From contig JAPLFR010000001.1 in NCBI GenBank assembly GCA_026390575.1, positions 186,001-250,000 of the forward strand: 64,000 nt of DNA, written 5' to 3'. The stretch comes from Ignavibacteriales bacterium. Lineage in GTDB: Bacteria > Bacteroidota > Ignavibacteria > UBA10030. Positions 26,317 to 63,821 of the stretch are shown in pieces; positions within the stretch are counted from its first letter, which is position 1, and every line of letters starts with the position of its first letter. Made by a program: the position numbers and the translations under genes. The notes under the pieces were generated by a model. The model had not been told where the DNA came from. It saw only the letters and a list, made by a program, of their open reading frames with translations, and did no database searches.

Positions 26317-26332
26317 GTAGCGGGAGGGATTC

Positions 26333-26387
26333 CCCGCATTAACTTCGTTAATGCGGGACAGGCGAACGTGGCTCTTCATCCAGCCAC
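26333..26387. repeat. Two perfect small palindromes
   Basis: 26333-26357 is a perfect 25-base palindrome with arm CCCGCATTAAC and loop TTC. 26368-26387 is a perfect 6-bp stem GTGGCT/AGCCAC with an 8-base loop. They follow GTAGCGGGAGGGATT, which matches the tRNA-Met 3' end in reverse orientation. Confidence 0.8.
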
Positions 26388-26430: not shown

Positions 26431-26436
26431 TATCAG

Positions 26437-26510
26437 TAGCGGGGGGGGGATTCGAACCCTCGACCTGCGGATTATGATTCCGACGCTCTAACCAGCTGAG
26501 CTACCCCGCC
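26437..26510 (-). tRNA. tRNA-Met (CAT), elongator type
   Basis: 74-nucleotide cloverleaf on the minus strand. Acceptor GGCGGGG pairs with CCCCGCT (one G-T at 1:72), D-stem GCTC/GAGC, anticodon stem CGGA/TCCG with loop ATCATAA (anticodon CAT), and T-loop TTCGAAT. The T-stem contains an A-C mismatch because the 3' strand is a run of nine C residues (GAGGG opposite CCCCC). CCA is not encoded. The CAT anticodon could also be a lysidine-modified tRNA-Ile; the acceptor and D-arm resemble elongator Met. Confidence 0.88.
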
Positions 26511-30643: not shown

Positions 30644-30825
30644 AGTTCCTCCTGCAAAAGTATATCAAACCAAAATTCAACATAACTCATGTGAGGACTG
30701 CTCAAATATAGTTAAAATTTAATAATAAAAATCAATCGGCTTTTTTCGATACAGCAACATATCAGTAGAGATCGGAATTGTTTTTCAAACATTTTTTTGG
30801 TATTATTTAAACAATAATGTTATAG

Positions 30826-30900
<75 letters not shown>

Positions 30901-30912
30901 CAATGTAATGTT

Positions 30913-30968
30913 ATAGGTTCTGCGCCAAAGGCGCATGAGCCTTCGGCTCAGAGTCCTATAGGGCCCAC
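30913..30968 (+). repeat. tRNA-Val 3'-end copy carrying two palindromes in the T-loop
   Basis: The copy repeats ATAGGTTC and then GAGTCCTATAGGGCCCAC, identical to bases 30876-30901 of the tRNA region, but exactly 30 bases (30921-30950) are inserted between TTC and GAG of the T-loop. The insert is two abutting perfect 15-base palindromes, TGCGCC-AAA-GGCGCA and TGAGCC-TTC-GGCTCA. No attachment-site partner or integrase gene is nearby. Confidence 0.9.
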
Positions 30969-31071: not shown

Positions 31072-33012
31072 ATGAGTAAAATAAAAATCACATTCCCTGA
31101 CGGGAACCAGAAAGAATTCGATCGCGATATTACCGGTAAGCAGATTGCTGAAGGTATTAGCAAAGGTCTGGCAAAAGAAGCGCTTGCTGTTGAAGTAAAC
31201 GGAGAAGTATGGGATTTAAGCCGCCCGATAAGCCAGGATGCTTCCTTCAAAATTCTCAAGTGGGCTGATGATGGCGGAAAGCATGCCTACTGGCATAGCT
31301 CTGCTCATTTGATGGCAGAAGCAGTGGAGACATTGTACCCGGGAGCAAAATTCGGTATCGGTCCCGCTATAGAAACCGGTTTTTATTACGACCTTGATCT
31401 TGGCGAGCACAATCTCTCAAAGGATGATCTTCAAAAGATTGAAGATAAAATGAACGAGCTTGCCAATCGTGACGTTCCATATGTCCGTGAGGAAAAAAAG
31501 TGGGAAGAGGCGGTCGAGTATTTCAAAAAGAAAGGTGACCAGTACAAGCTTGAGTTACTGGATGAGTTTAAAGGTCAGGCAATTTCATTATATCACCATG
31601 GAAATTTCACCGATCTTTGCCGTGGGCCGCATCTCCCTTCAACTGGAAAGATCAAAGCCATCAAGCTCTTGAGCGTTGCCGGTGCGTACTGGCGCGGGAA
31701 TGAAAAAAACAAGATGATGCAACGCATCTATGGCGTTACGTTCCCATCAAAGAAAGAACTGGATCAATATTTGTTCCTGCTTGAGGAAGCAAAACGCCGC
31801 GATCATCGTAAGCTGGGGTCCGAGTTAGAACTTTTTCTTCTCACACCGAAAGTTGGAAGCGGTTTGCCGTTGTGGCTTCCGAAGGGAACCATCATCCGCG
31901 AATCGCTTGTAGAATTTTTACGCGACGAACAAAGAAAGCGCGGGTATCAAGCGGTCATTACACCGCATATTGCAAATCTGGAATTGTACAAAACATCGGG
32001 CCATTATCCATATTATAAGGATTCACAGTTCCCACCTATTCAAATGGAAAATGGTGAAGCGTTTCTATTGAAGCCGATGAATTGTCCGCATCATCATCAA
32101 ATTTATTCATTTAAGCCGCGTTCGTATCGCGACTTGCCGATTCGCCTGGCTGAGTTTGGCACTGTCTATCGATATGAACAATCCGGCGAGATGAACGGTC
32201 TCACACGTGTACGCGGATTTACCCAAGACGACGCTCACATCTATTGTGCACACGACCAGTTGAAAGCAGAGGTTAAATCTGTCATCGATTTGACACAATT
32301 GGTGTTTAAAACCTTTGGTATGGAAGTGAAGATTCGCCTGTCTTATCGGGACGATAAGAATGTTGAGAAATACGGCGGTGAAGCTGCCTTCTGGGAACAA
32401 GCGCAGCGCGAGATCCGCGAAGTGGCGGATGAGATGAAACTTGATTACTTTACAGCTTATGGTGAAGCATCCTTCTACGGACCAAAGATCGATTTCATGG
32501 TGAAGGATGCATTGAATCGCACGTGGCAGCTCGGCACCGTTCAAGTAGATTATGTTATGCCTGAGCGGTTTCAATTAGAATATATCGGTCAAGATGGACA
32601 ACGGCACCGTCCGGTGATCATTCATCGAGCACCATTTGGATCATTGGAACGTTTCGTAGGAATTCTCATCGAACATTTTGCCGGAGAATTTCCGTTGTGG
32701 TTGGCACCGACGCAGGTTGCGGTTTTGCCCATCAGCGATGTATTTATGGAGTATGCAAAAGAAATATTTGATGGATTGAAAGCTTCCGGTGTACGTGTTG
32801 AGTTAGACGATCGCAACGAAAAAATCGGATATAAGATTCGCGATTGTGAAACGAAGAAAGTGCCGTATATGCTTGTGGTTGGTGAGAAAGAAAAAGTTGG
32901 CGGCTTAGTTTCAGTTCGCCGGCACAAAAAAGGCGATCAGGGGACAATGAAATTTGAAGAATTCCAAAATCAAATTCTCAATACAATTAAAACAAGAGCA
33001 CTCACAGTTTAG
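31072..33012 (+). CDS. thrS: Threonine--tRNA ligase
   Basis: Class II synthetase of 646 residues that charges tRNA-Thr and edits mis-charged Ser-tRNA. Domains in order: TGS (1-62), editing domain with HSSAHLMAEA (about 76) and the later FTDLCRGPHLP, catalytic core with zinc-ligand Cys in MNCPHHH, motif 2 YEQSGEMNGLTRVRGFTQDD, motif 3 HRAPFGSLERFVGILIEH, and a C-terminal anticodon-binding domain (about 540-640). Motif 3 has PFG where many relatives have ILG. It is full length. It begins the thrS-infC-rpmI-rplT translation operon; infC starts 11 bases after its stop. Confidence 0.98.
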   Translation: MSKIKITFPDGNQKEFDRDITGKQIAEGISKGLAKEALAVEVNGEVWDLSRPISQDASFKILKWADDGGKHAYWHSSAHLMAEAVETLYPGAKFGIGPAIETGFYYDLDLGEHNLSKDDLQKIEDKMNELANRDVPYVREEKKWEEAVEYFKKKGDQYKLELLDEFKGQAISLYHHGNFTDLCRGPHLPSTGKIKAIKLLSVAGAYWRGNEKNKMMQRIYGVTFPSKKELDQYLFLLEEAKRRDHRKLGSELELFLLTPKVGSGLPLWLPKGTIIRESLVEFLRDEQRKRGYQAVITPHIANLELYKTSGHYPYYKDSQFPPIQMENGEAFLLKPMNCPHHHQIYSFKPRSYRDLPIRLAEFGTVYRYEQSGEMNGLTRVRGFTQDDAHIYCAHDQLKAEVKSVIDLTQLVFKTFGMEVKIRLSYRDDKNVEKYGGEAAFWEQAQREIREVADEMKLDYFTAYGEASFYGPKIDFMVKDALNRTWQLGTVQVDYVMPERFQLEYIGQDGQRHRPVIIHRAPFGSLERFVGILIEHFAGEFPLWLAPTQVAVLPISDVFMEYAKEIFDGLKASGVRVELDDRNEKIGYKIRDCETKKVPYMLVVGEKEKVGGLVSVRRHKKGDQGTMKFEEFQNQILNTIKTRALTV

Positions 33013-44331: not shown

Positions 44332-44478
44332 TCAGCGTTCGTTTTGTGCTTGAAAGGAAAATTGGCTTGAATTCTTTTCCTACATGAGTTGTCAGGAAGA
44401 TGTTCTATTACTCATTTCTAGCTATCATTCATAAAATCCAATTGCTCTTCATTCCTTTCTTTTGTATATTTTTATAGT

Positions 44479-44535
44479 GGTGATTTGAACGATAGCTTGC
44501 GGCCACGATAAAGAATCGCTAAAGCGTCAACCGAA
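44479..44535 (+). promoter_or_regulatory. SAM-II-like riboswitch upstream of metH
   Basis: The stretch carries, in order, TGATTTGAACG, AGCTTGC, GGCCACGATAAAGAA and CGCTAAAGCG, the conserved elements of the SAM-II (SAM-alpha) aptamer (GATTTGA, TTGC, CCACG-TAAA, GCTAAA). SAM-II senses S-adenosylmethionine, the end product of the metH pathway. The following terminator at 44547 is the likely expression platform. I have matched motifs by eye, not scored a covariance model. Confidence 0.7.
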
Positions 44536-44546
44536 ATGAACTTCGA

Positions 44547-63287: not shown

Positions 63288-63821
63288 ATGGGGCGCAGTC
63301 GGTACAAAATATATGATTCACAGTATCCTCATTTTCTTACAATGACGGTTGTAGATTGGTTGCCGATATTTTCCAATCGGGAGGTAACAGACATTATTCT
63401 TGATTCATTGAGATATCTACAAGAAGAGAAAAAGGCAAAACTCTACGCATATGTTATAATGGAAAATCATCTTCATTGTGTTGTTCAAAGCGATGAGTTA
63501 ACGAAGGTGATACAATCATTCAAATCGTACACAGCGCGTGCCATTATTGATTACTTCACGGAACGGAAGAATGCAGGTATACTCAGGAAGTTGAGACAAA
63601 ACAAATTGAGCCATAAAACAGAGAGCGAATATCAGGTTTGGCAGGAAGGGAGTCATCCTGTAGAAATAACGACAGATGAGATGATGCATCAGAAGATAGA
63701 ATATATACATAACAATCCTGTTCAACGTGGGTATGTTGAAGAAGCGAGTTATTGGCGTTATTCTAATGCGCAAAATTATGAGAGTAAGCAAGGATTAGTG
63801 AACGTAGAAATGGAATGGTGA
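63288..63821 (+). CDS. REP-associated tyrosine (Y1) transposase
   Basis: Protein of 177 residues of the TnpA_REP/RAYT branch of the HUH superfamily. The HUH-type pair is in MENHLHCVVQ (H-L-H), and the nucleophilic Tyr candidate is in KIEYIHNNPVQRGYV, a hallmark of these proteins. Start ATG 63288. Such enzymes nick and join single-stranded DNA at REP palindromes rather than forming a classic transposon. The gene is flanked by perfect three-base-loop palindromes on both sides, as expected. Confidence 0.9.
   Translation: MGRSRYKIYDSQYPHFLTMTVVDWLPIFSNREVTDIILDSLRYLQEEKKAKLYAYVIMENHLHCVVQSDELTKVIQSFKSYTARAIIDYFTERKNAGILRKLRQNKLSHKTESEYQVWQEGSHPVEITTDEMMHQKIEYIHNNPVQRGYVEEASYWRYSNAQNYESKQGLVNVEMEW

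What the first reader, a model, noticed from the sequence alone, without database searches (positions are those of the whole stretch)
30913..30968. Two abutting three-base-loop palindromes inserted precisely in the T-loop of a tRNA-Val 3'-end copy
The 26 bases ATAGGTTC plus GAGTCCTATAGGGCCCAC of tRNA-Val recur 12 bases after the tRNA, but with exactly 30 bases inserted between TTC and GAG. The insert is TGCGCC-AAA-GGCGCA joined to TGAGCC-TTC-GGCTCA. The insertion is clean, has no target duplication that I can see, and lies in the conserved T-loop. This looks like targeted insertion of tiny hairpins into a spare tRNA copy.
Basis: seen in the sequence. Interest (0 to 1): 0.85.

Follow-up and report, generated by a model that had tools for sequence, protein, structure and literature searches.

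The report
Hairpin-tagged leftover half of tRNA gene
Next to a healthy tRNA gene lies its old, pushed-aside back half, split at one exact point by two tiny DNA hairpins; similar layouts recur beside tRNA genes of several bacterial groups, some with a small gene for a putative DNA-cutting enzyme in between, which points to tiny parasitic elements that break tRNA genes and repair them.

Summary
Five of five congeners lack the 67-bp insertion; in four, the bases that here follow the interrupted copy directly follow the intact tRNA, so this copy is the displaced ancestral 3' half. The pattern is systematic: around the genome's 47 tRNA genes, 17 of 17 matching 3'-half copies lie downstream on the same strand. 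Several longer versions carry a small GIY-YIG nuclease gene between intact tRNA and displaced half; in related genomes 35 of 45 such genes close after a tRNA have the displaced half behind them (reversed probe 0). The nuclease tree follows target tRNA (14 changes; shuffled 39-48). Two copies identical for 101 nt left and 18 nt right differ by the 30 bp. Best reading: an ORF-less relative of GIY-YIG elements that split and restore tRNA genes, as fungal mitochondrial mORFs do in protein genes; the hairpin pair is a separate insertion into the dispensable T-loop. What inserts the hairpins is unknown; no cutting was measured.

The parts
30826..30901 (+). intact tRNA-Val(GAC) gene
   Evidence: ARAGORN; Rfam RF00005 69.7 bits
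30884..30901 (+). 3' half (G57-C74) that now completes the intact tRNA; by position the newer of the two copies (inferred)
   Evidence: 18/18 identical to 30951-30968; the alignment gap of G001 and G004 opens at 30884
30884..30950 (+). the 67 bp absent from five congeners (placed at C56|G57; could be slid within the repeat)
   Evidence: alignment for G001 and G004; G002, G003 and G005 were in the other orientation there and were read by eye from the raw sequences of the same call
30902..30920 (+). 19-nt spacer without room for an ORF; 30906-30917 repeats the tRNA's 5' flank, 30913-30920 (ATAGGTTC) repeats the 5' side of the T-arm
30921..30935 (+). hairpin 1, TGCGCC-AAA-GGCGCA
30936..30950 (+). 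hairpin 2, TGAGCC-TTC-GGCTCA
30951..30968 (+). displaced ancestral tRNA-Val 3' half
   Evidence: the flank that follows it (GATTA...) directly follows the intact tRNA in four of five congeners
30815..30826 (+). 5' flank repeat TAATGTTATAGG, partner of 30906-30917
31072..33012 (+). downstream gene, read as threonyl-tRNA synthetase (name recalled, no family search); its start also follows the empty site in G001 and G004
26317..26363 (-). probable second case in this window: 31 nt with an 11-bp triloop hairpin (26333-26357) between TTC (26364-26366) and GAATCCCTCCCGCTAC, a displaced 3' half downstream of tRNA-Met (26436-26510); left of TTC the T-stem is not recognisable
   Evidence: read by eye; not found by the ungapped scan (2-nt length difference)

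Best explanation
A very small element inserted into the tRNA-Val gene at the T-loop (C56|G57). It brought or duplicated the 18-nt 3' half, so the tRNA stayed whole (shown: empty site in congeners, intact tRNA upstream). The old 3' half was left downstream (shown by the ancestral flank). Elements of similar layout in the same genome and in related genomes encode a small (roughly 80-110 aa) GIY-YIG nuclease between the intact tRNA and the displaced half. The window copy is an ORF-less derivative or a copy moved in trans (inferred). Most likely mode (inferred): the nuclease cuts its cognate tRNA gene, repair copies the element into the break, and the carried tRNA half rescues the essential gene. 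The 30-bp hairpin pair is a second, separate insertion (supported by a filled/empty pair of tRNA-Ser copies) into the TTC|GA of the now dispensable T-loop. The native T-loop offers the same sequence but cannot tolerate it (inferred). The hairpin machinery, and whether the hairpins protect the displaced site from re-cutting, are open.
For: Empty site in 5 of 5 congeners, ancestral flank next to the displaced half in 4 of 5. At tRNA-Lys the flank of G004 matches what follows the displaced half; at tRNA-Val(TAC) the three congeners shown (G001, G004, G005) read GATCCC as does the displaced half, while the intact gene reads GAACCC. 51 hairpin-pair copies (40 locus-tRNA pairs, 12 isotypes) lie downstream of an intact tRNA; the one negative hit is a tRNA call overlapping the hairpins themselves. 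Exact identity of the right half ends at 17-21 letters (tRNA end at 17-20) in 25 of 52, runs on in 7, stops earlier by mismatch in 20 (my count). Own genome: 17 of 17 matches (14 places, 11 with at most 2 mismatches) downstream, same strand. GIY-YIG: 9 domains in the own genome, 7 free-standing, 5 of them 3-113 nt after a tRNA, a sixth 443 nt after one in the tRNA-Ser array. 35 of 45 have the displaced half, reversed control 0. An ORF-bearing element with displaced half at tRNA-Val(GAC) itself in G058. Tree follows target. TTC-pair-GA sites in 9 of 17 GIY-YIG-rich and 0 of 17 GIY-YIG-lacking genomes, Fisher p 0.0009. Filled/empty pair.
Against: The window copy has no ORF. Its spacer partly repeats the tRNA's own 5' flank, which a plain tandem duplication with internal deletion would also give. 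6 of 10 perfect pairs in the own genome are not in tRNA sequence; 88 of 148 pairs in the named loci had no look-alike of their flank in the same stretch; the identical 30 bases occur outside tRNA in G025. Of 30 GIY-YIG matches in the named loci, only 10 lie within 250 nt after a tRNA on the same strand. 10 of 45 tRNA-adjacent ORFs gave no displaced half at the threshold (2 of these are cut by a contig end). 44 of 103 ORFs had neither a tRNA nor a T-arm upstream; 17 of the 24 with a tRNA within 200 nt downstream show a 5' tRNA part upstream (my count, no control run). One search looked only within 700 nt, so larger islands would be missed. The 9/17 versus 0/17 comparison is not corrected for kinship or completeness. 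No cleavage or mobility has been measured.
Confidence: 0.6

Rival explanations
1. Plain tandem duplication of the tRNA gene, decay and internal deletion of the second copy (here between two ATAGG), then insertion of a mobile hairpin pair into the unneeded T-loop. No nuclease element was ever at this site.
For: 12-bp 5' flank repeat beside the copy; several degenerate tandem copies at tRNA-Thr; spacers resembling the tRNA's own 5' part in some loci (7 of 30 at p<0.05); hairpin pairs also occur outside tRNA sequence.
Against: 3'-half copies lie only downstream (17 of 17; 51 of 52, the exception a doubtful tRNA call), whereas loss of either copy should be equally viable; exact homology runs past the tRNA end in only 7 of 52, several of them array units; 23 of 30 spacers show no significant resemblance; a similar arrangement elsewhere holds a nuclease ORF.
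Confidence: 0.27
2. attR remnant of a tyrosine-integrase island that used the T-loop and was later deleted, with a hairpin pair inserted in it.
For: Regenerated tRNA plus displaced fragment marks such islands (Islander, PMC4383910, abstract start seen); T-loop attB sites exist (mycobacteriophage Ms6, PMC1762012, abstract start seen). One search was limited to 700 nt, so islands of full size would not have been counted.
Against: Here the spacer is 19 nt; within the 700-nt limit the gaps were 8-554 nt, too short for an integrase gene, and several of the longer ones hold a GIY-YIG ORF; arrays with about 74-140 bp periods.
Confidence: 0.08
3. The copy is a functional RNA or processing signal of the tRNA-Val transcript (T-arm with a branched loop), kept by selection.
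For: Stable predicted fold, -29.6 kcal/mol, z -3.9, 0 of 200 shuffles as stable; right halves often identical to the native tRNA.
Against: The stability comes largely from the palindromes themselves (inference); absent in five of five congeners and apparently decayed at tRNA-Lys in G001-G003 (by eye); in some copies the left T-stem no longer pairs.
Confidence: 0.04

Closest known systems
mORF gene-hybrid elements of fungal mitochondria (Allomyces atp6; Glomus atp6, atp9, cox2, nad3)
   Same: Endonuclease ORF plus a carried 3' part that completes the host gene, with the displaced native 3' part behind it (PMC3630166, passages read).
   Different: Bacterial tRNA genes instead of mitochondrial protein genes; small ORF; carried part as short as 18 nt; displaced part often carries inserted hairpins; the window copy has no ORF.
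Genomic islands in tRNA genes
   Same: Regenerated tRNA and displaced fragment (PMC4383910, abstract start seen).
   Different: Insertion of tens to hundreds of bases in the cases seen, no room for an integrase, displaced 5' parts as well as 3' parts.
Double-hairpin elements of mitochondrial DNA
   Same: Two adjacent short hairpins thought to be mobile (known here from the search listing and from recall; no such paper read).
   Different: Bacteria; stems of 6 bp with 3-nt loops; recurrent position in tRNA loops (TTC|GA).
REP/RAYT palindromes
   Same: Small dispersed palindromes; the genome has 13 Y1 transposase matches, and the one in the window is flanked by triloop palindromes of other sequence.
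   Different: The palindromes near the three Y1 genes looked at are not the T-loop hairpin pairs. REP super-families with tagged ends are described in PMC3733652 (title and abstract start seen); I noticed no GTAG or CGTC tag in the flanks printed but did not search for it.
UPF0213 small GIY-YIG proteins
   Same: Closest solved chains 1zg2 and 1ywl, then SLX1 structure-specific nucleases.
   Different: Here multicopy and often placed at tRNA genes.

Membership tests
mORF-type gene-restoring homing-endonuclease element | endonuclease ORF inside the element | tested here: not met
   Window copy: 19-nt spacer. Met in longer relatives of the same genome. The window copy is therefore called a derivative, not a member.
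mORF-type gene-restoring homing-endonuclease element | host gene completed by the upstream copy, displaced native part behind | tested here: met
mORF-type gene-restoring homing-endonuclease element | empty site in relatives | tested here: met
   5 of 5 congeners lack the 67 bp
mORF-type gene-restoring homing-endonuclease element | nuclease cuts the element-free allele | not testable with these tools
   needs a cleavage assay
GIY-YIG nuclease (PF01541), for the ORFs of the longer elements | match above the curated cut-off | tested here: met
   3 of 3 proteins given, 50.9-55.6 bits, cut-off 22.6; no NCBIfam family at E 0.001
tRNA genomic island with tyrosine integrase | integrase gene between the two halves | tested here: not met
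   spacer 19 nt in the window; gaps 8-554 nt, which looked only within 700 nt
Double-hairpin element | two abutting hairpins | tested here: met
Double-hairpin element | present/absent at otherwise equal sites | tested here: met
   tRNA-Ser copies: 30 bp present or absent, 101 nt left and 18 nt right identical; shown for another locus of the genome, not for the window copy itself
REP mobilised by RAYT | same palindrome flanks a Y1 transposase gene | tested here: inconclusive
   3 of 13 Y1 genes looked at, none flanked by the T-loop pair sequences

The most novel reading that the evidence does not exclude
Several bacterial groups, Ignavibacteriota, Bacteroidota and candidate-phyla bacteria among them, host a class of very small gene-restoring homing elements: target-specific GIY-YIG nucleases that split tRNA genes and carry the missing half, a natural cut-and-rescue drive on essential RNA genes. 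The hairpin pairs are part of the system: they are inserted at the cut site of the displaced half (T-, D- or anticodon loop) and lock it against re-cutting and precise loss, with ORF-less copies such as this one moving in trans.
Probability: 0.28. Interest if true: 0.93.

Novelty: new variant of a known kind. Interest (0 to 1): 0.8.

Why it matters
If right, tRNA genes of little-studied bacterial groups are targets of natural cut-and-rescue elements, the logic used in synthetic gene drives, and the elements are small enough to assay in full. It also gives an unusual recurrent insertion site for palindromic DNA, between positions 56 and 57 of tRNA T-loops, which makes the movement of small palindromes testable. 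It would explain scattered tRNA fragments near tRNA genes and give many small GIY-YIG proteins a likely target.

Tried and rejected
Full tRNA genes interrupted by the pair: after taking out the 30 bp in a script, ARAGORN called a spanning tRNA in only 1 of 148 cases, so most are fragments, not genes with a splicable insert. Target-site duplication around the pair: not general; the longer ones in the part of the output shown were mostly in repeats or AT-rich DNA. Resemblance of spacers to the tRNA's own 5' part: 7 of 30 at p<0.05. E. coli tyrT/rtT repeats (recalled) as a precedent: the library gave nothing useful. A strict pattern over the phylum found 2 of 296 genomes, too strict because stem letters vary. 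Streptomyces matches (stems TCTGCCCGTGGCAGA) look like something else and were not followed; they stay in the counts of 118 loci and 148 pairs. Literature searches (the open PMC library only, listings capped) listed no report that I recognised of GIY-YIG elements that split and restore bacterial tRNA genes, nor of hairpin pairs in T-loops. PMC6506933 (passages) describes truncated gene copies and free-standing endonuclease ORFs in Armillaria mitogenomes but was not needed for the argument.

Qualifications: 'downstream only' holds for 3'-half copies; displaced 5' parts upstream of intact tRNAs exist. The 17 matches are 14 places, because tRNAs that share a 3' end count some twice; three have 3 mismatches and may be chance, and its label 'DHE' is a loose text match. 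The seven of 21 own-genome palindrome loci in tRNA-like sequence were judged by inspection; five have computed support (Val-GAC, Val-TAC, Lys, Thr; Ser), the Met-like and Pro-GGG ones are by eye. In one search the ORFs came from fetched loci of the best-scoring listed matches, plus seven own-genome loci, not from all matches. The GIY-YIG-rich genomes were 17 that I picked from those with seven or more matches; the lacking ones are all 17 without a match.

Full report
What is there. tRNA-Val(GAC) at 30826-30901 is followed after 11 bases by ATAGGTTC, then two perfect 15-nt hairpins with 3-base loops (30921-30935, 30936-30950), then GAGTCCTATAGGGCCCAC (30951-30968). The cut lies between C56 and G57 of the T-loop (positions counted by me). 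I see no duplication at the cut.

More than chance. In the 3.82-Mb genome the two stem types occur at 26 places (21 loci, 5 of them abutting pairs), the backward-read control at none. In the window alone the signal is weaker: 2 matches, 0.32 expected, 5 of 100 shuffles with 2 or more. Ten perfect pairs of the general form TNNGCC-NNN-GGCNNA twice are present, control none. By their flanks, four of the ten lie in the T-loop of tRNA 3' copies (Val-GAC, Val-TAC, Lys, Ser) and six do not. tRNA genes number 47, about 0.1% of the genome. The identical 30 bases also occur outside tRNA sequence in a relative of the same family (L074, G025).

Widespread. Phyla from record titles: Ignavibacteriota 24, Bacteroidota 19, 28 without a phylum, 4 Actinomycetota, 1 archaeal, the rest spread over other, mostly candidate, phyla. 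Of 148 pairs in these stretches, 60 had a look-alike of their flank (18 of 21 letters or more) in the same stretch, reversed probe 0; in 54 of the 60 the look-alike overlapped a called tRNA, in 6 it did not; 88 pairs had none. A second count, with five own-genome loci added, found 52 pairs within 700 nt of a tRNA whose 3' half they repeat (13 of 16 letters or more): 51 downstream on the same strand, one negative where the tRNA call overlaps the hairpins. Exact identity of the right half ends at 17-21 letters (tRNA end at 17-20) in 25 of 52, runs on in 7 (several are array units) and stops earlier in 20; left identity is mostly 4-9 letters, range 0-22 (my count).

Displaced ancestral half. Five of five congeners lack the 67 bp. 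In four of them the intact tRNA is followed by GATTA..., the bases which here follow the interrupted copy; in the fifth (G002) the flank differs (G001 and G004 by alignment, the others read from the raw sequence because they were in the other orientation). At tRNA-Val(TAC) the three congeners shown read GATCCC like the displaced half, while the intact gene reads GAACCC; at tRNA-Lys the downstream flank of G004 matches what follows the displaced half, and G001-G003 look like decayed versions (by eye). One base change could also be a later mutation.

Direction. Around 47 own tRNA genes, 17 three-prime-half matches within 1.2 kb (14 places, 11 with at most 2 mismatches) were downstream and on the same strand, none upstream or opposite. 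A tandem duplication in which either copy may die predicts both orders.

The nuclease. Longer spacers (Arg-TCG, Pro-CGG, Leu-CAA, Ser-GCT) hold an ORF; the three of these proteins that I scanned match GIY-YIG, PF01541. The genome has nine GIY-YIG domains: two in long ORFs (639 and 290 aa), seven free-standing. Five of the seven lie 3-113 nt after a tRNA on the same strand, a sixth is the second unit of the tRNA-Ser array (443 nt), the seventh, with a stop inside, is near a contig end. In the 118 named loci 30 domain matches were found (two in one ORF), 10 of them within 250 nt after a tRNA on the same strand; in L128, L149, L162, L202 and L203 the order is tRNA, ORF, then the hairpin pair 15-21 nt after the domain.

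Survey. 81 of 98 genomes of the order have such proteins. Of 103 ORFs in fetched loci, 45 lay within 150 nt after a tRNA; 35 of those 45 have the displaced half within 900 nt, reversed control 0. 44 of 103 had neither tRNA nor T-arm upstream. Of 24 ORFs with a tRNA within 200 nt after them and no displaced 3' half, 17 have at least 16 of 20 letters of the tRNA 5' end upstream of the ORF, several with hairpins in the D-loop, anticodon loop or T-loop (my count and reading, no control run). In 20 of 34 displaced 3' fragments a perfect hairpin of 6 bp or more lies in the stretch (up to 70 nt) before G57, against 16 of 566 control windows.

Target specificity. In a tree of 112 proteins, poorly resolved (51 of 108 inner branches open), 76 labelled by neighbouring tRNA need 14 changes of isotype; 200 shuffles need 39-48. 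Pro-CGG, Pro-GGG, Leu-CAA, Arg and Ser groups are visible. Shared descent inflates this.

The hairpins as a separate step. In the tRNA-Ser array on C5, unit 2 has a bare T-arm; a copy near the end of contig C3 has the same sequence (101 nt left, 18 nt right identical) with 30 bp added at C56|G57. That the C3 copy belonged to the same array is inferred. Other palindromes occur in the same T-loop position at tRNA-Arg, tRNA-Leu and others (by eye). Seventeen genomes rich in the nuclease, picked by me, have TTC-pair-GA sites in 9 cases; the 17 genomes without it in none (Fisher p 0.0009), not corrected for kinship or completeness.

What it works like, and what it is. Fungal mitochondrial mORFs carry an endonuclease ORF and a 3' part that completes the host gene, with the native part displaced (PMC3630166, passages). 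The long elements here have the same anatomy in bacterial tRNA genes. The window copy lacks the ORF, so it is filed as an ORF-less derivative, not as a member. The closest solved proteins are UPF0213 and SLX1.

What is shown and what is inferred. Shown: exact sequence, empty site, displaced half, recurrence, nuclease neighbourhood, clustering by target, presence/absence of the pair at another locus. Inferred: cutting by the nuclease, rescue by the carried half, trans-mobility of ORF-less copies, any protective role of the hairpins. Unknown: what inserts the hairpins; Y1 transposases are present (13 matches), but in the three looked at no link was seen.

Organism. Unnamed; three related contigs have the same lengths as public Ignavibacteria records (G003:C116 169745 and PMDB01000074; G005:C123 16095 and RPQN01000100, both same genus; G015:C242 5286 and VGWB01000242, same family), so Ignavibacteriota is the likely phylum (inference).

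Noticed in passing
window 26317-26366 (-): The other tRNA of the window, tRNA-Met, seems to have a displaced 3' half (GAATCCCTCCCGCTAC) downstream with an 11-bp triloop hairpin at the T-loop position; upstream of it a piece like its anticodon arm (GTCGGAATCATAATC) lies among palindromes (by eye).
   Followed up: partly
window 63288-63821 (+): 177-aa ORF at a Y1 transposase match (RAYT-like), flanked by triloop palindromes CCAAACTCTGTTTGG, TGAAGCTCCGCTTCA and CCAAGCGGAGCTTGG.
   Followed up: partly
L305, L307, L309, L311, L315, L327, L332, L348, L357, L367, L375, L380: Mirror layout: 5' part of a tRNA with hairpins in its D-loop, anticodon loop or T-loop, then a GIY-YIG ORF, then the intact tRNA.
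   Followed up: partly
L066, L067, L141, L171, L183: Tandem arrays (about 74-140 bp periods) of T-arm pieces with hairpin pairs, several next to tRNA genes.
   Followed up: partly
L049, L058, L059: Hairpins nested inside the loops of other hairpins (such as CTTGTCCGCCATTTTTTGGGCGGA) in tRNA copies.
   Followed up: no
L075-L078, L080: In G030 and G031 a closely similar hairpin pair sits in several non-tRNA places, next to GTGTCTT-like sequence.
   Followed up: no
L074 (G025:C10): The identical 30 bases of the window's hairpin pair in a place without a tRNA copy.
   Followed up: no
window 44467-44542 (+): SAM_alpha riboswitch, 40 bits.
   Followed up: no
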